A stretch of DNA of 64,000 nucleotides from Larus michahellis (lineage: Eukaryota > Chordata > Aves > Charadriiformes > Laridae): positions 5,151,967-5,215,966 of the forward strand of contig NC_133917.1 of NCBI RefSeq assembly GCF_964199755.1, in the 5' to 3' direction. Each line of letters opens with the position of its first letter. Position 1 is the first letter of the stretch. The notes beneath the pieces were generated by a model that was not told the DNA's origin, ran no database searches, and was given only the letters and a program-made list of their open reading frames with translations. Both the position numbers and the translations under genes were made by a program. Shown here piece by piece: positions 16,279 to 63,127 of the stretch.

Positions 16279-24192
<7,914 letters not shown>

Positions 24193-32800: not shown

Positions 32801-35800
32801 CTCCCGGGTGATCTCCGCACAAAGCCAGCCCGGCCGCCCGCCAGGGACGGGATGCGGACGGGGCCAGGCAGGGTGTCTGGTATCTCCCGGTGGGAGCACC
32901 CAGCTTATTGTGGGGCACCGACGGAGAAGTACAGGGGGAAAAAACATTCAGGGTTTCTCTGCAGGCAAAATAGGGGGTAAAATAGGGGGTTTGGTACAGT
33001 CCAATCCGCAGGTGACATCTTCTTGCTGCTGTGCCAGTGCTGGTGCCCACCCTGTGCCCAGGTAGGTGGGTATCCAGGAGTGAGAAGATGCAAGACAGCG
33101 ATTAAATCCTTAATAAAAGACTTTGCACGAGCAGAGAGATGGCTGGAGGTGACTCAAAGGTGGTTTTGCGAGAGGTTTGTGTTCACCAAACCCCAGTGGG
33201 GGTTTCTCCTCTCTGACCGGGGCTGGGCATCCTCTCCTGGGTACAAACCACCCGAGATCCCTCAAGCCAAGCTCCACTGGGAAGGGACAACATCACCCAC
33301 CCGGAGGCACCAAAACAAACAGGAAAAAAACCAATTTGTTGGAAAAAGGAGCAAAAATAACTGGAGTGAGGGGCAGTTTCTTGGCACAGGGCACCCAGCT
33401 CTTTGCCACCCCTGGCAGTCCCTCCAGAAGCACGCTCAGCCCGTTTGTTTTGCAGCCTTTGGGTCTGGACACAGCGTTCCCAGGGCTCATCCAGCCTTTG
33501 TTCCCATCACACCAGTTTCGAAGGGGATATAAATCGATGGCTTACTTGATGGGGAAGGTTTCATCCTTTCTCTGCTGCCTCTCCTGGGGCGGGACGATCT
33601 CCCAGCCAAAAGTCAGGCTCCAGTCGAAGTTGCCCCGGCTGTGCTGTTTGCCGTTCTGGATGGGCTTGGAGAACTCGAAGGTGTTGAGATCGATGGTGGC
33701 AATGTCAGGGCTTACGACGGCCGTGGGCTCTTCGGCAATGCGGGATAAGAGGGGCTCCAGCCAGCCGTGGAAACACTCGCCTGGGACATCGGGGAGGGTT
33801 TGGCCGTTGAACGGGGACGACTTCACCCCCCTCACCAGCTCCCTGGGGACCCTGGGAGGTGGTGGGTACTCACAGTGGGCATCCAGGAAGGTGAGGACCT
33901 CCCCGCTGGCCACGCTGGCCCCCAGCAGCCGTGCTGTGATCAGCCCTTTCCGCTCCTTCTGCCGCACGACGCGCACGATCTGGAGCTGCTCCACGTAACG
34001 ATCCAGCTCATCCTTCAGGTAGTCTGGGGAGGGGGGGAAAGAGGAACTGGCTCCGTCAGAGGGGGGAGATGACGGTCCCTGCGCCCCACCAGCCCACCCT
34101 GCTGCCCCCATCCCACCCCATTCCATCACCTGCTGCTCACACCCCGCACCCGGGTTCAGATCCGGGGACACGCAGAGTCTCCTTTCCCCAAAATCCAAAA
34201 ATAGTTTTGGCTGAAGAAAGTGGGTTTTGCAAAGGAGCCGGTCTAATCCCCCACCAAAGAGGGATTAGAGCAACAATGGGGCGAGAAAGTCTCATGCCCT
34301 GTGGCTAAAGCATCACCAGGACCGGGCTGCCACCGCGGGAAGAGAGAGCAGACAAGGTGTCACCCTGGGAAATGGGGATTTCTCTCCTTCCTCGGCAGAT
34401 GCAGCCAAGCCAAAAGCTGGGAATGGCCCAGCGAGAGCTGGGATGTCCAGAGACCCGTCCTGAGGAGGGACCCTACGTCTCACCAGCATCTCACCTGTGT
34501 CCCCACCACAGCGGGAGCCAAGCTCACGGGTGATAACGCCCTGCACCGCCCCGCGGTCTCTGCTCCTTGGGAGCCCGTGCAGACACCGTGGGCGGAAAGG
34601 GAGTGTTTATCTCTGGGGCGAGGACAAAGTCCGCTCCCCTCCAGCGCCCCGATGCTGAACCACATCGTTAACTTGCTCTGGGTGTAGCTAATGAGGATTG
34701 CAGCCTGGCAGGCACACCGGCCGGCAGATGAGGCATTTGCAGGATGCTGGAGGAGTGCCCGGTTTTTCTCCAGGGCTGGGTTAACGGCAGCGCTGGAGAA
34801 GGGAAAATCCCCAAGGGCGCTCTGGGGTGTATGCGAAGCAACGTGGAAGAGTTGTTGGATGCATCCCGGGAGAGCTGGCATGAGCCGCTTCTCCTCCGAG
34901 TGGTTCGGAACCGCTGCTCCCAGGAATGGAAAGACGCTTGGCGTCTCCCCGCATCCCTCCGGCTCCCGCATCCCTGCCACAGGTCCTGCATTCCACCACA
35001 GCTCCCACATCCCTGCCACGGCTCCCACCCACCGTCGGTGCTGGCGTCGTCCACCAAGATGATCTCCTTGAGCAGGAGGGCCGGGGAGGCGTGCAGGACG
35101 CTGTACACCGTCCGCAGCAGCGTGGACCAAGCTTCGTTATGAAAGACGATGACGACGCTGGTGGTGGGCAGGGGGGGGCACCGCTTGAATTTCTGGTCGA
35201 TGCACCTCCAAGAGAGAAAAGCAGCGGTCTAAGCAAGACAGGGACGGGGGCCACGGCAGAAACACCCCTCGTGCCCCTCAAACCCCACGGCAGCAGGGCG
35301 GCTCCTGGCCCCGGCGGCTCTCAGCTCGTCACCGCTTTGATTTCAATGGATTTCTACCTCTCCCCCCGTCGCCAGTCGAGTGAATCCCATTCCTGCCGCC
35401 CGCCTGGCCCCCATGTCCCCCCCATTGTCACCGCTACACCTGCTAAGCACGGATAATCGCCTGCCGGCGGGGGGGCAGGGGGGCCGCTTTGCATGCCAGG
35501 GCTGAGTTTCTACCTCCTATTCAAGCCTTTTTTTTCCCCAGCCCAAAATCCCCAGCCCACCCCCCCCCGAGCAGACAGGGGTCGGGGGGGGGCATGCTTT
35601 AATCTGGCAGCCCATGGCTGGCGGGCAGGCGAGGAAATCTCTCCAGTTTATGCTGCTTTTCTCGCTCCCCCCCCGGCCCCGACCCCAGCGGGATCTGAGG
35701 CTGTTCCACTCGGCTAAGAAAAGAAAAAGTCCGATTACTGGAGCCGGCTGAAATAAAAGAGGGAGAGGAGGGAAAGGGGGGGGGAAGATGCCGGAGCCAC

Positions 35801-38939: not shown

Positions 38940-39350
38940 CTCGGGCCCCCCTTCCCCGGGGGGCTCCATCCCGGGACCCCAGACCCTTCCAGAGGGCTCC
39001 ACACCGGACACTCTGGCCCCTTCCCTGGGGGAGCTCCGCACCGGGACCCCCCAGCTCCCCTTTCCCACGGGAGGGGGGTTGTTCCACACCGGGACCGCCC
39101 GGACCCGCTTGCCCGGGGCGGGAACTCCGCACTGGGACCCCCCGGACCCTTTGCCCCGGGGGGGATGCTCCGCACCGGGACCCCCCAGCTCCGCCTTCCC
39201 ACGGGGCGGGGGCTCCGCACCGGGAACCCCAGGACCAGACCCCCTTCCCCCGGGGTAGGGGAGGAAGCTCCGCACCGGCACCCCCCGCCTCTTTCCCGGA
39301 GGGGGCTCCGCACCGGCACCTGCACCCTCAAACCGGGCTCCGCACCGGGG
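38940..39350. repeat. Degenerate GC-rich minisatellite near the GALNT6 promoter
   Basis: A core resembling 'gctccgcaccgggacccccc' recurs about every 50 bases with variable spacing, interleaved with 'ttcccacggg'-type segments. The copies are imperfect. Long proline- and glycine-rich open frames on both strands are by-products of this structure. Confidence 0.7.
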
Positions 39351-39800
39351 TCGCCCGGCTTCCCCTACCCTTGAGGCGGAGGCTCCGGACCAGCCCCTTT
39401 CCCCAGTGCGCACGGGCACGCCCGGTGCACGGGGACGGGACCGGGACCGGGACCGGGACCGGGACCGGGACCGGGACCGGGACCGGGACCCCCTTCACTC
39501 CCCCTACCCCGTCCCCGTCCCCGCTCACCCGGTTCAGCGGCGGCGGCGGCGCGCGCGGGCCGCAGGTGCGGTCTCGGCGGGGCGGGGCGGGGCGGAGCGG
39601 GCGCGCGCGGGCGGGGCGGGGCCACCGCTGCCACCTGCCGCCGCCCCGGGGTACAGGTGCACGAGGTGGGGGGGGGCGGTGTCGCGGCGCGGTCCTAGCG
39701 CCGACCCCCGGCCGAGCCACGCCGCGGTCCTAGCGCCGCCCGACGGACCCGCGACGGCCTCACGGCGGGGGGCGACGGCGGCCTGAGAGCGGGGTACCGA
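39330..39800 (-). promoter_or_regulatory. GALNT6: CpG island, GALNT6 promoter with noncoding first exon
   Basis: A dense CpG island has GC boxes (GGGGCGGGG) at about 39580-39620. On the minus strand, CCGG followed by GTGAGC gives a consensus donor, so a noncoding exon would end at 39529. It lies upstream of the GALNT6 start with only intron-like sequence between. The TANK-like gene begins to the right on the other strand, so the island might be shared. Confidence 0.6.
39434..39490. repeat. CCGGGA hexanucleotide array
   Basis: About nine head-to-tail, essentially perfect copies of CCGGGA/GGGACC lie inside the intron that follows the proposed GALNT6 exon 1. Such an array is GC-pure and likely unstable in length. 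Confidence 0.9.
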
Positions 39801-39899
39801 CGGGGACGGGGGTCTGTGGGGGCCGTGGGCACGGGGGGTGCCGTGAGTGGGAGCGGCCCATAGGCCTGACACCTGGGGCGCAGGGGGTGCCGGGGTCAT

Positions 39900-40378
39900 A
39901 GGGGCCTGGCACTGGGGGTGCTGCGAGCCACAGGGGCCTATAGAAGCCACAAGGGCCACAGGGGCCTGGCACTGGGGGTGCCGGGAGCGACAGGGGCCTA
40001 TAGAAGCCACAAGGGCCACAGGGGCTGGCACTTGGGGTGCCGGGAGCCACAGGGGCCTATAGAAGCCACAAGGGCCACAGGGGCCTGGCACTGGGGGTGC
40101 CGGGAGCCACAGGGGCCTATAGAAGCCACAAGGGCCACAGGGGCCTGGCACTTGGGGTGCCGGGAGCCACAGGGGCCTATAGAAGCCACAAGGGCCACAG
40201 GGGCCTGGCACTGGGGGTGCCGGGAGCCACGGGGGCCTATAGAAGCCACAAGGGCCACAGGGGCCTGGCACTGGGGGTGCCGGGAGCCACAGGGGCCTAT
40301 AGAAGCCACAAGGGCCACAGGGGCCTGGCACTGGGGGTGCCGGGAGCCACAGGGGCCTATAGAGGCCATAGGGGCCTG
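39900..40378. repeat. 60-bp minisatellite, eight copies
   Basis: Eight nearly identical head-to-tail units contain 'ggggcctatagaagccacaa' and 'ggcactgggggtgc'. Units are 60 bases except one of 59 near 40021. Differences between copies are mostly single bases (actggg versus cttggg), so the array is young or homogenised. Because 60 is a multiple of three, frames stay open on both strands, but these are not genes. Confidence 0.95.
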
Positions 40379-40379
40379 C

Positions 40380-43300
40380 CCCCAGGTGTGCTGGGGGTCA
40401 GTAAAGGCCTGGCAGTAGGGGTGCTGCTGGGAGGTATAGGTCCTGTACTGCCCATGGCATGGTGCCCTTCCTACCCAGCCTGCCCCTCAGTTCGTGCCAC
40501 GTTTGTTGTTATTATTCTTATATAGTAATTATTCCGCAGGCGCTGCGGAGCCTCCTGAGCTTCCTGGCTCTGGGGCAGGGGTTCACCGTGGATGGGAGTT
40601 TATTTACCATCGTTTATACCAAGATGCAATCATAATTTTTGTGAGCACACCGGTTCCTATAAATAGACTGTCAACATGGGAACTTGCTAATTATTCCCAT
40701 CCCTCTGTGTCATCCCTTATTAGCCACGATCTTCCCATTGACCTGCTGATTGCACCAGCTGCTGCTCTCCACCGGTGCCCTGAGCCCAAGCTTGGGGACA
40801 GGGCCATGACACCCCCGGTGTGTGATGCAGCGGCAGCCCCAAAGGATGAGCCCCCCCCTCCCAGCACCCCGTTTCCTGCCTCCTCAAGGCCCGTCCTTAA
40901 CACTAGATGGTGGTATCTTCATGAAGCTTCTGCCTGAGGATCAGCAGCTGCTAGGCACCGTACAAAAACTCCCTGGAAAAGCCAGGTGAGATATTGGTGG
41001 TGTGAAAGAGCCGCCCAAAGCCGCTTCAGGGACTATGTGACAGCTACAAGCCCTTCGGCAGGGGATTCCTGCGCTTGCAAGGAAGGGCATGAGCAGTCCC
41101 CAAGCCTCCTGTGCACCCCAGGAGAGGCTGTGGTTGAGACACGTAGGAGGGTGATGGGGAAAACCCCAGCGGCTTCTCCGGGATCGCGGAGGGATGAGCC
41201 CTGGGCAGGTTTTAATCACCCAGCTGAGGATTTAGCCTTGTCTCCTGTGCTGTACAGAGGATTTGGGGGATTTGACCTGCGGCAGAGTGAGTATTAATTT
41301 GGATTATTGGGATATTAGCTTGAATATTAGCTCCCTTACAGGGGATAAGTGAGGCAGGACTCCAGGGCACTGCAGACGCACAAATACCCAGCAGCCTCCA
41401 CGTTACAGCACTAACGAGTCACTAGAGAAAGGTGGGGGGAAACTGAGTCACTGAAAAGGCACCTGCCTCACCGGGTGCGATGCAGAGAAGAGCCAACACT
41501 CACCCGCCATGAGGCCACCCTTGGCCTTCATAATCATCTCCTGTGCTTTTCAGTGCTAAATTTAAACCCTGGGTTTGCGCAGCGGCTGCCTGTAATTCAC
41601 TGCCGCTTTGTTTCCTGCCTCGCCGTCATGCAGAAGTTTCGCTCTTAGCACACAAACTGCAGGGGAAATTCCCTACCCCCAAGTTTGCTGCTGCTGAACT
41701 TTTTCTCAGCTGCAACTCGCTGAGCCCGATGTCGCACCGTGGCTGCCCAGCCGGGGGAAGGAGGGCCCCCCGCCAGAGTAAGTGGCTTCTGTGGAAGATG
41801 GAGCTTTTTTGGCTTCACAGGGTCCACGCCGGGCCCTGTCGCGGGGGATGGGGTGGGGATGGGCTTTTCACCGCGTCAAGCCAGCCCTGTTCCCTGGCAC
41901 TGAGGGAGAACGCGGCTGAAAGCAGGTCCTGCCCCTCTGAGTTGCTCGGTGAACCCTGAGCATCCGATTTCCCCAGGATTTTTGTGTTCTGGGATTGCTT
42001 CCTTTAATTGCAATTTGTGAAAGGCTTTTCAAGTTATGCAGGAGATTAAAAATCGCCTGGTGCACCGTCCACCTAGTGTCACAAAAGTAATTTGGGGGAA
42101 ATGAAGAAGCCGTTAACTACTGAAAAAACCAGCGGGGATCGTACAAAATCGATACAGGCTTGCTTGGGTATGACAGCTCCAAATCACACTCTTCTTAATA
42201 ATTAATTGGCATAGCTATATATAACTCTCAGACAAAATATATCCTCTTAACCTTTAATTTGATATGTTAGCTCTGGAGTTAGCTGCTTTGGAGGGTGCAA
42301 AATGTTTATCCTTGGCTTTTAAGAAAAATTTTAAGAATTTTTCAACCAAACAGCTGAAAACATGATGCAGTCACAGTGGTGTGAGAAGCACAGAAATACC
42401 TGCACTGGAAGTGAACCTTACCATTTTGTCTGCAGTTTTCCTTGCGCCGGGTGCGTTTCCTTCGGGCCGGTCGGGATTTCTGCCTTTTCGCCCCTACTGG
42501 GGAATCCACATCGCCCCGGGCGTCAGAGGAGGCCCCATCAAACCCATCAGCCAAGCCCCTAATTACAGAGCCGGAGCTTAAATTTGCAGCGCTGAGCGGT
42601 AGCGAACCTGGAAAATATGACAGGAAGCAAAGCTGATTTGCATATTTATGCTAATCGGGATCGCACGAATCTTTCAAATTAAAATGTACTTTGCAGATGG
42701 CTTGCAGATTTGTATCGAGCTTTGGTTTTATTTATTATCTTTCAGACTGGTAATAATTGGTGCAATATGGTAAAACTGGAAAGTCTAATCCACAATACAG
42801 CTGTTAAAGCAAGGAGAAATGTGCTGAACACAATGCAGAGAGCTTTTTCTTTGTAGTAACAATATTTGGTTAACGCATACTGTGTGGGCATGAGCTACAT
42901 TTTAATTTGCAGGGTGTTTTGGAGAGCAGAAGGGGCAGCTCGGGGCTGAGCATCTTGAGAAAAGGGAATTGTGCCCCCATGCTTGGGCGTGGTTGCTTGT
43001 TAGGATTTGTTGTTGGGAGTTTGCTCTCATGCCACTGCACAAAAAATTAGACCCCTTGGTGCTAAGTGAATGGGAAATGCAACTTTTTCCAGGTAGATTT
43101 TTCAATAAATGGGACTTTTTGGTCGGTTGGAGCTGAGCTCGTGGCAGCTGCGGGCTGAGGGGTGGAAAAGCCCAACTTGACTGTTCAGTTAACCCCTGAC
43201 TTGGACAGAATCACTTCCCTTTTCAGTTTTTTTCTGTGTAAATTGTAAGAGAAGTGGGAGTGCTTCTTTCTTTGCAGTCCCATGGTCATGAGCACGTGGG

Positions 43301-43420
43301 ATCTCAAGGGATCCTGCAGCACCACTGAGCCCAGTCCTCCCCATCCCACCAGCTCGGGGTAACCTCGCCGCCTTTGGGTAACACACAGCTGGTCATTTCC
43401 TCTTGCTTTTCTCCTGATCA
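40380..43420 (+). other. Region upstream of the TANK-like exons
   Basis: This stretch separates the GALNT6 promoter from the first supported TANK-like exon. It should contain that gene's promoter and N-terminal exons. I found only weak exon candidates (see 41729-41777). The sequence from 42000 to 42900 is AT-rich and looks like ordinary intron. Confidence 0.4.
41729..41777 (+). CDS. Candidate N-terminal exon of the TANK-like gene
   Basis: An ATG at 41729 opens a 16-codon frame that ends in phase 1 before a perfect donor (GTAAGT at 41778). The next supported exon (from 43422) needs exactly this phase, and the join reads SHRGCPAGGRRAPRQ-S-TMEMEE. The start context is weak and no similarity to the TANK N-terminus is visible. 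It may therefore be chance, and the true N-terminal coiled-coil exons may lie elsewhere or be lost. Confidence 0.3.
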
Positions 43421-43426
43421 GGCACG

Positions 43427-46281
43427 ATGGAGATGGAAGAAATATTCCTCCAGCTCTGTGAGGAGGTCGCCAGACTGCAGGATTTGTGCACCAAGCAGGG
43501 CCAGCTCCTCCAGAAGCTGACGGCCAGGAAGGGACCCGTCCTCGGTAAGATGCAGGGCCGGGCAGAGTGCATTGAAACTGCAGATCCAGGCTGACAAATG
43601 TAATTTGAACCTTTGTCCTGATGCTGGCAAGGAGTTTGCTGGGGAAAGTGGGGCTTATGTGAAGCCGGTTGAAGACAGAAGTGTGCTCTGCAACCCGTGC
43701 TGGCTGGCGTGGCTTTTTGGCTTCGCCGTCTCCATCAAATGTGGAGTAATGTGTGCGTGTGTCTGCTTAGAGTCATGTTAAAACCGCCGCAGGTGTGCTG
43801 CTGCTTATTCACACCCCTTGCCCCTGGGGAGAGGGGGAAGGAGCGTGGGGCAGATGGTACCCTTTGCCTCGAGCAGTTTTGGGAAGCAGGGGTGGCAGTG
43901 CAGCCTCCAAAGCCTGGAAACCACCTGGGGAAATGTTCTCGCCCTCCCCAGCGAGAAATCTCCCTCCTGGTCCCCTAGCTGTGGTCCATGCACTCGTCTG
44001 TCCCCCACAAGCAGTCACATCACTCCCGCAGGGTGTTTTCTGTGGTCAGGAGGGATTGGCTTGGGCAAACGACTGCCATGTGCTGCAAAACCAGCTGCCG
44101 GGCCGGCCATCATGCTCCCCACCCCTGCACTCGCCTCCTTTCCCTACAGCTCCGCCGTCTGTGTGTCCTTCCCGGGGCTTGTGCGCAAATAAATGTCTCC
44201 AAAGAGGACGCAAACCAAAGCCGTTACTGGAATCAGCCCAGCTTTTGGGGATGTGGTGATGTCTCAACATCTCCTAAGGTAGCTAACACTCCTCTGACTC
44301 TCAGCCCTCTCTGGCTGTCCTCACATGCCTTTTCTTCGCTGGTCCAGCCTCCTCGTATTTAGTCGAGCGATGGGGACAGGCGAGCTTTGCCAGCAAGGAG
44401 GTAGCGCCCAGTTGTTTCGCAAGCGCAAGAGGAAAGTGAGGCAATGGGAAGGGAAAACACAAACGCTGTTAAGCCCCAGGAATGACTGCTCTGGCTTGCT
44501 TTCTTTCAAAGATATCCCTGTGTCGCTGCCGATCCAGTGCACGGAGGATATGGTCACAGAGGAAGGCGAAAGGCCACCGGACAGCCACCAGAAATGCTCT
44601 GAGGCCCCAGTATCTGCCACCTCCAACCTGGAGGGCTCTGCTCATCCCCTGGTGCAGCCGCACGCTGCTGGCATGTTGCCCGGCTTCGATGGCAAGTACT
44701 CACCAAGCGCCGTGAATGGCAGCGTCTTTGGCGTTGGAACTGGAGGAGCAGCTCTTGCTCTAGCTTTTGGCAGCAACAAGGCGGAGAGGAGCGAGAGGGT
44801 GGATATAAACATGTGGCTGAAAACCTGTAGGATGCTTCCACCTGTGAAAGCCCCCAAAGAAGAAGTGAGAGCTTGCTGCAGGCCGCAGGAGTTTGCGGCA
44901 CCAAACCCAGTTGTCGGGGACTCCTTCCTGACTCTTCTGGACCTCTATGAAGCCCCAGAAGCCCTTCAGAGGGAAGATGATCCCAGGGAAAGCGTTCTGC
45001 CTGCTGAGGCTAACGTCCCGGTAGAGATCCGAGGACCCATGAAGGTAAATTGTGAGGCTTGACGGGGAGTTTTGTCTGTGACTTTTGCGTGCTCTTCCTG
45101 GCGTAATGGCACGTGTCAGACTTCAGCATCCCCTCCATCAGCCCTGCTGTAGCACTTGGGAAGCTGTGGCAGAGTGGAGGTTTAGAGTTACGTCCTGAAA
45201 AGGTCTCTAGGCACCCGATTCTCCGGTTCCCAGGGGAATTAGGTAAATAAAAGCCCCTGGGATCTGGCTGCCAAGCAGCACCTGAGGCATTTTGGAGAAG
45301 TCCCTCCCGTGATCCTTTCTGAGGCAATGAGGAACCCTTGAAGCAGCCGATCCAGTCTCGGGGGGAAGAACTGTATCGACCTCCTTTGGATCTGCAAATT
45401 GAATGAGCTCTTAAATATTTCCTTTATTCTCTTTGATTTGTGTGCCCTGAAAAGGATGATTTCTAAAGACATCCTAAACTCTGTCCTCCTAGTAGGCCTT
45501 CACAATGTGTGTTACGGGTGGGACACCAACGCTGAACTTACCAGCGAGGGTTCCTGTAATGCCAAGCCCATTTCCTTTCATTTCTTCTTCCAAATGAGGC
45601 CCTTAAAAATTATTTCACGACTGCCGTGTCTACATAGTCATGGGGAAAGCTATTGATTTTCATCCTGGGCTATATTTAGAAGCTAGTTTCTTTTTAAGAA
45701 GAAAGAGAAGAAAGAAAGTGGAAGCGGTGCCTGTCTGGTAAAGCCCTAATGTGCCTTATCAGCACTTAAATGATAATGGCACAAAAAGGAAATTACAAAT
45801 GCACGCCAGTTTGCTTCTTACAAAAGCACTTTTCTCATGTTCTGGCTTGGATAGTGATTGTAGCTGCTGAGGGATAAGCGATGGGGGATGCTCAGGTGCC
45901 ATACGGATCCTCTGGTGGATGTTGGTGAGGATGGAGCGAGGAGGGACTCCAGCCCTTAGCCCAGCCTTTCTGTGGGCACAAAAATGCGGTGTCTGCTTTT
46001 GGAGGCTGCGCTTCAGCGTGGCAGATGACAGGATGGAGGCTGGACACAGCTGGGGGCGTGAAAAGAGGCTGCTTCTGCCGTTCCCACTGACCGCTTTTCC
46101 CCTTCACTCCTCGCAGATGTCCTGGACGCCGGGCTGGATGCTGGAGGACGGTACGCTCGGGCAAGGCGCCGTCCTCGCCTCCGAGGATGCTCAGGCTTGT
46201 GACATTTGCCAGGAGATTTTCCCATTGAACGCTGTGGGCCAAGCAGACTATTTAAAGCACGTCTTAGCCCATATGAAGTAG
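43427..46281 (+). CDS. TANK-like TBK1/IKK-epsilon adaptor, paralogue of TANK (N-terminus uncertain)
   Basis: Three exons join in phase: 43422-43544 (ATG at 43427), 44512-45044 and 46117-46281, for 271 residues from that ATG (human TANK has 425). The first carries a helix, FLQLCEEVARLQDLCTKQGQ, that aligns without gaps to the TBK1-binding helix of TANK. The second begins PVSLPIQCTED, matching TANK SVPIQCTD, a PxQxT-type TRAF-binding site. The exon 2/3 junction reads EIRGPMKMSWTP against TANK AIRGPQQPIWKP. The last exon ends in a zinc finger, CDICQEIFP...LKHVLAH, as in TANK (CEFCQAVFP...LRHLNSH). TANK scaffolds TBK1 and IKK-epsilon with TRAFs in interferon and NF-kappaB signalling; the same role here is inference. 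The N-terminal coiled coil of TANK is not found. The neighbour is SLC4A8, not SLC4A10, so this is not TANK itself. Confidence 0.85.
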
Positions 46282-59800: not shown

Positions 59801-62800
59801 GAACGTTGGCCCAAAAATTAAATTTGCGATTGTTTTTGATGATTTCAAATTCATCACTGGAGTTGGTGAGATGATGTGTCCCTTCTTGAGCCGTGCTCTG
59901 GGCTGGGAGCTCCTGGGGATTTCCTTGGGTGCCCTTTGAGCAAGGGCACGTTCTTCTCTCTCATTTTGTTTTTCTTGCCTAGGTTCCTGTTTGTTTTCCT
60001 TGGACCAGGAGGAAAAGCCCATCAATACCATGAGATCGGCAGGTCCATGGCTACCATCATGACAGATGAGGTGTGCTAAGAGAGATCTCAGGGTCATTTT
60101 TTGGCTTTCTTCACCTCTCCCTGTCTCTGTAGTAGTGAGGAAGAGGATTTGCTGTCCCAGCTGCCTGCAGGAGGCTAAAATCCCACCTGGGGCGCTCGTC
60201 CTTCTCCCCAGGGTCCCCAGCACCCTGTCCCCACTGGTGGCATTGCCAGGGCCAGTGAAACTTCTCCGCTTTAAGCAAAAGGCTGTGGTGTGCCATGCGG
60301 GACGGCAGCCTCATGGAGATGATTACAAATACCATGATGTGCAGATTTTGCCTTTTGGGATAATTATCTTGCGTTTAGCCAAGAGCTGATTGCGCGGGTT
60401 AGGACGTCTGAGATGGGTTGTCCTCTCACCAGGTTGTCTCCTATTGGCAGGTTTTCCATGATGTTGCCTATAAAGCCAAGGACCGGGCTGACCTTGTGGC
60501 TGGCATTGATGAGTTTCTGGATCAGGTCACAGTCTTGCCACCAGGAGAGTGGGATCCATCGATCCGAATTGAGCCTCCGAAAAATGTCCCTTCGCAGGTG
60601 GGTGCTGTGGTGGAGGGGGACGGGCAGGATGGCAGCCACGGCTGGGGATGCTGGCCAGGGGCCCAAATTCACAAGTCACATACCGAGACCGGAAGCAAAA
60701 CAAGCCAGCGATTACAAATCCATATCTTTATTTTATTTCCATTCTAACAGGAGAAAAGGAAGATGCCAGGAGCTCTCTATGACAGTGCGTCTCACAGCAA
60801 GCCGGAGAAACACAGTGGTCCTGAACTGGAGCGGACAGGAAGGTATGAACTTTAATAGTTTGGGCTTATTTTTTTCTGTTTGCCTCTAAAATTTGAGCGT
60901 GCGCCTCCTTTCTAGAAGGTTTTCGGGGTTAGTTGGTAGAGTGAAGGGGCTCCACATTACCAGCTCAGTCCCCTGGGCTGGGCGGGTGGGAGATCTGGGC
61001 AGCTGGGCTCAGCCGCAGCATCATCGCACACACGTTTTCTTGATTTGGGATGGAAGCAGATTTGTGAATCCCTCCGGGTAGAGCTCTGCTGCTTCTCAAA
61101 GCGAGGGACTGTTGCAGTAAGAGGGGATGGGCTCTCAGGTTCCGGCTTTTTTCTTTTTGTTGAAGGGGTTTTTTGTATGCCTCAGTTTCTACTGGGTGTA
61201 CCATGGGAGGAGGAGACCACTTCTTTTTAGCAATGAAAGTTACTCTGTGCTCGTGGTTGTCCTTCTGCAGCAAAGAAAACTTAATGTGGTCTTCCAAGAG
61301 AATGGTTTATTTTTTTTCCTTCCTCCAGGCTCTTTGGAGGTTTGATCCTGGATGTGAAGCGAAAGGCCCCGTGGTTCTGGAGTGACTTTCGGGATGGTCT
61401 GAGCCTGAAGTGTCTGGCGTCCTTCCTCTTCCTCTACTGTGCCTGCATGTCCCCTGTCATCACCTTCGGGGGACTGCTGGGGGAGGCGACCGACGGCCAC
61501 ATAGTGAGCACCTCTCTGCTGGGTGGCGCAGGGGAGGATAAAACTCATGCAAAAGTCCTGCTGCAGTGAATTTGCTTTGGTTTTTTTTTTCCCCTAATGG
61601 TTTATTTACTCAGTGCTGCCCCTCTTCCCTGGACAGAGTGCCATGGAGTCGCTGCTGGGCGCGTCCATGACCGGCGTGGTCTATTCCCTCTTTGCTGGCC
61701 AACCTCTCACCATCCTGGGCAGCACCGGACCCGTCCTGGTGTTCGAGAAGATCCTCTACAAATTCTGCAAGTAAGGCTGGCGGCTGCGGCCAGGGCCTGC
61801 GAGAAGCAGTGATGGAGAAAAGATGTTTTTCTTACGTTTTTCTTAGCGGTAGTTGTTAGAGTTGTCTCCTGTGTCACAAGCATTGCACACTGCTGCTTTA
61901 GTATGTGACGGTGCAAGAGCCCTCGGCTCCTGAAGGGTGGATGGGGTCGTTTGGGGCTTTTAGGGTTAAAGCCAAGCAGCGGGAGGAGGAGAAACCACAA
62001 GGGTGTGGATGCCCAAGATGGGCTGCACAAGGAAGATGAGACAAAGCATTCTGGTTTGGGCATGAGGGAAGATTTGCTTTCCTCCGAGTATAAAACTGGG
62101 CACTTTTCAGCATGATTTTTGCTGGAAGTGGAAATATATTTTGCCCACATATACAAATAGTTTTCTGGTCAAATATTTTGAGTTTTGATGATTTTTATTG
62201 AAAAAGTAGGAGCTTTTCATGTGAAAGGGATATTTTCCATGTCCGTCTTTTTTGTTGTGACGACTTTGGTGTGAGATTAATCACCCTAATTGCAATTAAA
62301 TTTATTATTAAGCCCCAACTTGCTGGCAGCAGGTGGGTGGAAAACCAGCCGGTTTCGATGTTAGGGCATCGGGGTGATGCGGGAGAGCACCACCTTCCAC
62401 AACGGGGACCTGACCTCAATTAGCCTCCAAGACATTAACACAAGATAATTGTTAAATAATGATAATTAAATAATTGGCCTCTCTTCCTGTGGGCCCACAC
62501 CCTGCACCGCAGCCCCGAGGCTGTCTGGAGCAGTACATGGAAACCGCATTTCCCATCCGCAGCCTTGACACGCTCCTAAATTGCTCCCAATGCTCCCAAC
62601 TTTCCCCGAAGGCAGGGATGGCGCAGAGCCTCTTGCGGGCCTTTCAACCCTTTGTTTTATTGTGGTTTCCCAGAGACTACACGCTCTCCTATCTCTCTCT
62701 GCGGGCGTGCATCGGGCTGTGGACCACCTTCTTGTGCATCGTGCTGGTGGCCACTGACGCCAGTTGTTTGGTTTGCTACATCACCCGCTTCACCGAAGAA

Positions 62801-63127
62801 GCCTTCGCCTCCCTCATCTGCATGATCTTCATCTATGAGGCTCTAGAGAAGCTGAGTCATCTGCGAGAGATCTACCCTGTGCACATGCACAGCAAGCTCG
62901 ACCTTCTCACCATCTACTAGTGGGTTTTTTCCTCCTAAAATGCTGCTGCCCCTTGGCAGGAGCTCAGGGCTGCACCTCCACTGCCTTTCCCTTACCCCTC
63001 TCTTGGCTTCTCTCCTCCCAGCTGTAAGTGTGAGGCGCCCACCCATCCCAGCAACGAAACCCTGCGTTTCTGGGAGAGCAACAAGATCAACGTGTCTGGC
63101 ATCACCTGGGAAAACCTCACGGTGACT
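50757..63127 (+). CDS. SLC4A8: SLC4A8 sodium-driven chloride/bicarbonate exchanger, 5' part
   Basis: This plasma-membrane transporter (NDCBE) imports Na+ and HCO3- in exchange for Cl- and raises intracellular pH, especially in neurons. Coding exons are 50757-50801, 56145-56226, 56925-57059, 57504-57639, 57853-58013, 58916-59104, 59241-59329, 59460-59617, 59983-60070, 60451-60597, 60751-60842, 61329-61503, 61637-61770, 62674-62919 and 63022-63127; all phases agree, giving 661 residues of roughly 1090. The start [15 protein letters not shown] is specific for SLC4A8 among the Na+-coupled members. The band-3 cytoplasmic domain includes [19 protein letters not shown] and [13 protein letters not shown]. 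Transmembrane segments begin near residue 465 ([17 protein letters not shown]). Exon 15 encodes the large extracellular loop with CKC and N-glycosylation sites NET, NVS and NLT. The rest lies beyond the window. Confidence 0.96.
50850..56144 (+). other. SLC4A8 intron 1
   Basis: A 5.3-kb first intron. The left kilobase is G-rich and repetitive on the + strand; the rest is mixed. An AT-rich minisatellite at 54.07-54.32 kb is annotated separately. I found no exon of another gene. Confidence 0.7.
54070..54322. repeat. AT-rich ~18-bp minisatellite in SLC4A8 intron 1
   Basis: About fourteen imperfect units of the type 'ttaaattgcgattttattt' follow each other, with variants (ttgaattgcggttttattt, ttaagttgcatttttaag). 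The unit length varies from 16 to 20 bases. It is conspicuously AT-rich within a GC-rich region. Confidence 0.85.

What the first reader, a model, noticed from the sequence alone, without database searches (positions are those of the whole stretch)
43422..46281. A fourth TBK1-adaptor gene: a TANK paralogue beside SLC4A8
Seen: three phase-compatible exons encode a TBK1-binding-type helix, PIQCTE (TRAF-binding PxQxT type), an IRGP....WTP motif and a CxxC...HxxxH finger, in the same order as in TANK. Known: human TANK lies with TBR1 and SLC4A10, AZI2 with EOMES and SLC4A7, and TBKBP1 with TBX21. Inference: the copy beside SLC4A8 and GALNT6 (paralogues of SLC4A10 and GALNT3) is the fourth whole-genome-duplication copy. 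I know of no human gene of this family at 12q13, so it was probably lost in mammals. A retained bird copy could change how bird TBK1/IKK-epsilon signalling is wired.
Basis: partly seen in the sequence, partly recalled or inferred. Interest (0 to 1): 0.88.

Follow-up and report, generated by a model that had tools for sequence, protein, structure and literature searches.

The report
Fourth TBK1-adaptor gene beside SLC4A8
This stretch carries an intact-looking three-exon gene for a fourth, probably shortened relative of the immune-signalling adaptors TANK, AZI2 and TBKBP1, sitting where the fourth copy from the ancient vertebrate genome doublings would be expected.

Summary
Three exons (43422-43544, 44512-45044, 46117-46281, +) join in phase into 271 codons without stops. 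The spliced protein passes Pfam's TBK1-binding-domain (TBD) cut-off (36.7 bits against 27); exon 1 alone scores 23.9. PIQCT[DE] occurs only here and in TANK in the fetched DNA; both introns match TANK's. The genome also holds TANK, AZI2 and TBKBP1. TANK and AZI2 lie in the order adaptor, T-box, SLC4A on one strand; TBKBP1 keeps a T-box neighbour; this gene keeps an SLC4A neighbour without T-box. It is no recent TANK copy: helix identity 10/32, against 18/32 between this TANK and recalled human TANK. Best reading: the fourth ohnolog. Corrections: trees of the short helix lean to TBKBP1, not TANK (support 91; 61 with other blocks added), so its sister is open; and the family's N-terminal coil was not found, so it is probably a short adaptor starting at ATG 43427. 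TBK1 and TRAF binding are inferred from conserved contacts. Expression, other species and loss in mammals were not tested.

The parts
43422..43544 (+). Exon 1 of the model (acceptor AG at 43420-43421, donor GT at 43545). Likely start ATG at 43427 with A at -3 and G at +4; encodes the TBK1-binding helix MEMEEIFLQLCEEVARLQDLCTKQGQLLQKLTARKGPVL; ends in phase 1.
   Evidence: TBD by Pfam; leave-one-out profile
44512..45044 (+). Exon 2: end of the Pfam TBD with the TRAF-binding-type motif PIQCTED, a long variable linker, and IRGPMK at its end; ends in phase 0.
   Evidence: same intron positions as TANK
46117..46281 (+). Exon 3 with stop: MSWTPG...CDICQEIFPLNAVGQADYLKHVLAHMK, a CxxC-HxxxH finger of the kind at the C termini of TANK and TBKBP1.
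   Evidence: finger profile E 4.5e-5; weak match to TAX1BP1 fingers E 0.069; no Pfam finger over cut-off
43545..44511 (+). Intron 1, phase 1, as in TANK and TBKBP1 after the TBD helix.
45045..46116 (+). Intron 2, phase 0, splitting IRGP from W.P as in TANK.
33857..35159 (-).
   Evidence: C26:5185823-5185996 and 5186985-5187125, minus
61327..62896 (+).
39251..40000 (.). CpG-rich stretch between the GALNT gene and the new gene; possible promoter of either or both (inference).
   Evidence: G+C 0.80-0.81, CpG observed/expected 0.87-0.92

Best explanation
A protein-coding gene for a fourth member of the TANK/AZI2/TBKBP1 family, the whole-genome-duplication copy that stayed beside the SLC4A8-type gene. 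Most likely mechanism: the exon-1 helix docks on the C-terminal coil of TBK1 (and IKK-epsilon) in the NAP1 manner. PIQCT binds the TRAF domain of TRAF1/2/3/5 in the TANK manner. So the protein bridges TRAF complexes to TBK1, or competes with TANK, AZI2 and TBKBP1 for it. The C-terminal finger supplies a third, unknown contact. Shown: gene model, domain, motifs, intron phases, neighbours. Inferred: transcription, binding, effect on signalling. The family's N-terminal coil appears absent, so a short adaptor lacking whatever that coil binds is expected.
For: Pfam TBD over cut-off across the splice. Positions of human NAP1 whose change to Gln largely decreased or abolished TBK1 binding (L226, L233, L244; PMC5027247 section 8), and L247 of the ninth layer, are all Leu here by ungapped register with the 5ep6 chain (I fitted the paper's numbers to the chain by spacing). 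PxQxT as in the TRAF1-TANK and TRAF3-TANK complexes (PMC6125299 passages). Intron phases as TANK. Collinear adaptor / T-box / SLC4A blocks on C11 and C2, adaptor / T-box on C22, adaptor / SLC4A here. Over 3 of 5 lined-up exons (those available from all three loci) the SLC4A neighbour is 194/222 identical to the one near TANK. Bird-like and recalled human TANK group together without it (support 70 concatenated, 88 helix only).
Against: No transcript, no second species and no binding data. The coil exon of the other three members was not found, and the exon-1 acceptor leaves phase 1 where the three others have phase 2, so the 5' part has changed and a decaying gene cannot be excluded. TBD of exon 1 alone is below cut-off. 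Finger over no cut-off in Pfam and not listed by PF18112; the structure model of exon 3 is poor (pLDDT 65.2). The trees rest on six sequences and 32 helix columns, lean to TBKBP1 rather than TANK, and the helix tree does not even keep the two AZI2 sequences together. Presence of TBK1 in the genome was not shown.
Confidence: 0.8

Rival explanations
1. A recent relic: a true fourth ohnolog that has lost its promoter and N-terminal exons in this lineage and is decaying, with the remaining frame still open by chance of time.
For: No coil exon found; changed acceptor phase of exon 1; no expression evidence.
Against: 271 open codons, consensus splice sites, strong Kozak context and retained TBK1- and TRAF-contact residues. 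G+C by codon position is 0.638, 0.439, 0.657, which looks coding, but no control was run for it.
Confidence: 0.13
2. A lineage-specific duplicate of TANK (or of TBKBP1) inserted beside SLC4A8.
For: TANK-like architecture: PIQCT, IRGP/W.P and finger in order; the helix tree leans to TBKBP1.
Against: Helix identity to this genome's TANK 10/32 and TBKBP1 11/32, against 18/32 between this TANK and recalled human TANK; finger 10/29 and 8/28 against 21/29. A 121-residue TANK query did not list it at E<=10, though only 3 first-look candidates were scored. Position and strand beside SLC4A match the TANK and AZI2 blocks.
Confidence: 0.03
3. A real fourth member, but with further upstream coding exons (a diverged coil) not recognised here, hence a full-length adaptor. 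This overlaps with the best explanation and differs only in the 5' part.
For: The exon-1 frame is open upstream of the ATG to the acceptor. TBKBP1's coil is seen only weakly with a TANK query (E 0.17) and at E 6.6e-4 with an AZI2 core query, so a more diverged coil could be missed.
Against: A three-paralogue coil profile finds nothing in the window (best E 4.3, wrong strand), though its known members score high because they built it; the acceptor phase differs from the three others.
Confidence: 0.2

Closest known systems
TANK (I-TRAF)
   Same: TBD helix, PIQCT[DE] directly after it, IRGP and W.P split by the last intron, C-terminal CxxC-HxxxH finger, both intron phases, and an SLC4A gene downstream on the same strand.
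   Different: Helix only 10/32 and finger 10/29 identical; no N-terminal coil found; separate locus. In tblastn with this protein only the helix, the PIQCT stretch and chance pieces of TANK's locus were hit, not the linker.
TBKBP1 (SINTBAD)
   Same: TBD helix 11/32 identical, the highest of the three, with Leu at all four contact positions; phase-1 and phase-0 introns; C-terminal finger; beside it in the helix tree (support 91).
   Different: No PxQxT (the matching exon starts GQRHSPLSQCHSP) and no IRGP/W.P before the last intron; finger 8/28; coil present.
AZI2 (NAP1)
   Same: TBD helix of the NAP1-TBK1 crystal structure 5ep6 (profile match E 2.3e-11, profile made of all four paralogues); Leu at all four contact positions; SLC4A gene downstream on the same strand.
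   Different: Helix 7/32; no finger in the human protein as recalled; coil exon present.
Optineurin
   Same: Binds the same TBK1 C-terminal surface (PMC5027247).
   Different: Different family (recalled); not compared by sequence here.

Membership tests
TANK/AZI2/TBKBP1 TBK1-adaptor family | TBD domain over Pfam's curated cut-off | tested here: met
   Spliced protein 36.7 bits, cut-off 27; exon 1 alone 23.9; unspliced whole-genome scan missed it
TANK/AZI2/TBKBP1 TBK1-adaptor family | Hydrophobic TBK1-contact positions of the helix (NAP1 L226, L233, L244, L247) | tested here: met
   Leu at 4 of 4 in ungapped register (positions, fitted to the chain by spacing)
TANK/AZI2/TBKBP1 TBK1-adaptor family | N-terminal coiled-coil exon before the TBD | tested here: not met
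   Not found in the 64 kb window by tblastn or profile; present in the three others. A diverged coil is not excluded. I still file the gene in the family because the TBD defines it; the missing coil marks it as a shortened member
TANK/AZI2/TBKBP1 TBK1-adaptor family | Phase-1 intron after the TBD helix | tested here: met
   (TANK, TBKBP1; not worked out for AZI2)
TANK/AZI2/TBKBP1 TBK1-adaptor family | Physical binding to TBK1/IKK-epsilon | not testable with these tools
   Needs co-precipitation or calorimetry
TANK | PxQxT TRAF-binding motif after the TBD | tested here: met
   PIQCTE; motif as described in PMC6125299 (passages)
TANK | C-terminal CxxC-HxxxH finger on its own last exon, phase 0 | tested here: met
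   for sequence; fold not shown (poor), Pfam finger models not reached
TANK | Closest relative in a tree is TANK | tested here: inconclusive
   Six sequences: grouped with TBKBP1, not TANK (support 91 on 32 helix columns, 61 in the concatenation); the helix tree splits the two AZI2 sequences, so it is unreliable. On balance against a TANK sisterhood
Fourth ohnolog (2R copy) | Lies in a block collinear with the other copies | tested here: met
   Adaptor then SLC4A on the same strand as on C11 and C2; T-box absent from C26 (0 of 51 T-box matches), present on C11, C2 and C22
Fourth ohnolog (2R copy) | Orthologues beside SLC4A8 in other vertebrates | not testable with these tools
   No other vertebrate genome was on hand; scans of viral and prokaryote contigs found none

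The most novel reading that the evidence does not exclude
This lineage keeps a fourth, coil-less TBK1 adaptor, absent from mammals, that carries both a TANK-type TRAF motif and a NAP1-type all-leucine TBK1 contact. It would act as a minimal bridge or natural competitor that resets which TRAF complexes reach TBK1/IKK-epsilon.
Probability: 0.45. Interest if true: 0.78.

Novelty: new member of a known kind. Interest (0 to 1): 0.64.

Why it matters
TBK1 and IKK-i are described as associated with three adaptors, TANK, Sintbad and NAP1 (PMC3169550, start of abstract), which compete for the same coil of TBK1 (passages). A fourth with both TRAF and TBK1 contacts would mean that findings on these adaptors in mammals cannot simply be carried over to lineages that keep it. 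It would also fill the fourth adaptor / T-box / SLC4A block.

Tried and rejected
Recent TANK duplicate: rejected on divergence and position. Retrocopy: rejected, the introns match TANK's. Chance motifs: rejected. N-terminal coil exon: searched and not found. Solved structures: phmmer hits of exon 1 plus the PIQCT stretch to WD-40 proteins are sums of short repeat matches, not homology; hits of the whole protein (alanine dehydrogenase E 0.15, TTHA1013 E 0.68) are chance; the TRAF-motif peptide found nothing. A structure model of exon 3 alone was too poor to use. A bacterial-type promoter scan of 39000-40500 found nothing and says nothing about an animal gene. Relatives in viral contigs (2 pattern stretches, 0 relatives) and prokaryote contigs (24 stretches, 0 relatives): none. 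Presence of TBK1 in the genome was asked three times and never answered, so it is not shown. Literature: I saw no paper on a fourth family member in the rows listed (9 of 9; 0; 20 of 623; 12 of 64; 0; 15 of 16; 6 of 6; 3 of 3; 8 of 34) and 62 (10 of 169); these are titles and starts of abstracts, the library lacks most subscription papers, and no annotation database of vertebrates was searched, so an automatic annotation of this gene may exist.

Full report
What is there. On the + strand of the window, exons 43422-43544, 44512-45044 and 46117-46281 have AG before and GT after each internal end, join in phases 1 and 0, and give 271 residues and a stop. ATG 43427 has A at -3 and G at +4. The protein holds, in order, a TBK1-binding helix, PIQCTED, a linker, IRGP-MKMS-WTP across the last intron, and CDIC...HVLAH. 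In the 1.405 Gb genome the protein query listed its own three exons and one chance match (E 2.89; 5 candidates scored). So no second close copy was seen; that search is not sensitive enough to list TANK, AZI2 or TBKBP1.

Is it more than chance. Pfam TBD scores 36.7 bits (cut-off 27, E 3.6e-9) and runs from residue 2 to 52, across the first splice; exon 1 alone scores 23.9, so joining the exons as proposed adds about 13 bits. Profiles built only from this genome's other members (three helices; two fingers) rank the frames holding exon 1 and exon 3 first among six-frame segments of the window (E 0.011 against 3.4 for the next; 4.5e-5 against 0.026). PIQCT[DE] occurs at 2 distinct places, this gene and TANK, in 690,882 codons scanned over the fetched DNA, part of which overlaps; four rows were printed, three of them this same gene. 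0 of 5000 Markov sequences stayed open for 271 codons. Against it: the unspliced whole-genome TBD scan did not list it at E<=0.001, and Pfam's finger models do not reach it (best 13 bits, cut-off 27); the whole-genome scan with PF18112 listed 3 other places, and neither this finger nor those of TANK and TBKBP1.

Relatives in the same genome. PF12845 found 3 places: C11:41763687 (TANK, by PIQCTDKTD and finger), C2:44440151 (AZI2), C22:1179971 (TBKBP1) (exons read). TANK's helix exon ends in phase 1 before the exon with EIQFSMPIQCTDKTD, which ends TIRGPHQ in phase 0; its last exon starts LIWQP and ends in the finger. The window gene has the same two introns at the same places. TBKBP1 shares the phases and a finger but has SPLSQCHS in place of PIQCT. 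At the 5' end of the helix exon TANK, AZI2 and TBKBP1 have phase 2 (read by eye from the sequences), whereas the window's acceptor would give phase 1; together with the missing coil exon this points to a start at ATG 43427. In one search the coil profile contained its own positive controls, so their high scores are no measure of sensitivity. In the single-sequence searches a TANK query found AZI2's coil at E 4.4e-7 and TBKBP1's at 0.17, and an AZI2 core query found TBKBP1's at 6.6e-4; in the window the best of the four queries reached 0.57, at 22944, far from the gene.

Position. T-box exons lie at C11:41668073-41669240, C2:44182228-44183420 and C22:1155219-1155854, all minus; SLC4A exons lie at C11:41470775-41495449 and C2:44018899-44030628, both minus, and at C26:5213293-5219873, plus (79 of 95 candidates scored). 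So reading downstream: TANK, T-box, SLC4A; AZI2, T-box, SLC4A; TBKBP1, T-box; window gene, SLC4A. C22 also has SLC4A exons, 2.3 Mb from TBKBP1, and C11 a second set at 42.39 Mb; I did not test to which subgroup they belong. None of the 51 T-box matches is on C26. Over the 3 of 5 lined-up exons available from all three loci, the SLC4A proteins are 194/222 (C11-C26), 198/228 (C11-C2) and 185/221 (C2-C26) identical. Gene names TBR1, EOMES, TBX21, SLC4A10, SLC4A7 and SLC4A8 are recalled from human maps, not from a call. The GALNT-type gene at window 33857-35159 runs the other way.

Age and placement. In hand-made ungapped blocks the helix is 10/32 identical to this TANK, 11/32 to TBKBP1, 7/32 to AZI2; this TANK and recalled human TANK share 18/32; the finger is 10/29 (TANK) and 8/28 (TBKBP1) against 21/29 between the two TANKs. 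In two small trees (six sequences) the two TANKs group without the window gene (support 70 concatenated, 88 helix only). The window gene falls beside TBKBP1, with support 61 in the concatenation and 91 on the helix alone; the latter tree also fails to keep the two AZI2 sequences together, so I do not lean on it, but it speaks against a special tie to TANK. The duplication most likely predates the split of this lineage from mammals. PIQCT and IRGP/W.P may be ancestral features kept by TANK and this gene.

How it most likely works. In the NAP1-TBK1 complex two TBD helices and two TBK1 C-terminal helices form a four-helix bundle; L226Q, L233Q and L244Q of NAP1 largely decreased or abolished binding and L247 forms the ninth layer (PMC5027247, section 8 read). 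In ungapped register with the 5ep6 chain (numbers fitted by spacing) this protein has Leu at all four positions, as do AZI2 and TBKBP1 of this genome, while its TANK has M, I, L, F. TANK binds TRAF1 and TRAF3 through PxQxT in SVPIQCTDKT (PMC6125299, passages); here it reads SLPIQCTEDM. TANK, Sintbad and NAP1 bind TBK1's second coil and compete (PMC3169550, passages). So the likeliest role is a short bridge from TRAFs to TBK1/IKK-epsilon, or a competitor. The finger resembles those of TAX1BP1 only weakly (E 0.069) and its partner is unknown. All binding statements are inference.

What remains open. Transcription, the 5' exon, conservation in relatives, the state of the site in mammals, and the presence of TBK1 in this genome (not completed). 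The rows listed by the literature searches held no paper on a fourth member (several lists were cut). A word search of the held main text of two papers on genes missing from bird assemblies found no TANK, SLC4A8 or GALNT6 (PMC4290089) and no TANK, SLC4A or GALNT (PMC11745021).

Noticed in passing
window 39893-40376: Minisatellite: 60-base unit, 8.1 copies, 96% matches, beside the CpG-rich stretch between the GALNT gene and the new gene.
   Followed up: no
window 39432-39490: GGGACC hexamer repeat, 10 copies, 98% matches, inside the CpG-rich stretch.
   Followed up: no
G000:C26: None of 51 T-box matches lies on C26, although three sister blocks keep one beside the adaptor: the fourth T-box copy seems lost while the adaptor stayed.
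   Followed up: partly
G000:C22:1178198-1178287 (TBKBP1 last exon): TBKBP1's C-terminal finger, scanned alone, passes Pfam's autophagy-receptor finger Zn-C2H2_12 (31.2 bits, cut-off 23.2) and TANK's nearly does (21.1), hinting at a shared origin with TAX1BP1/NDP52 fingers; the whole-genome scan with that model listed neither.
   Followed up: partly
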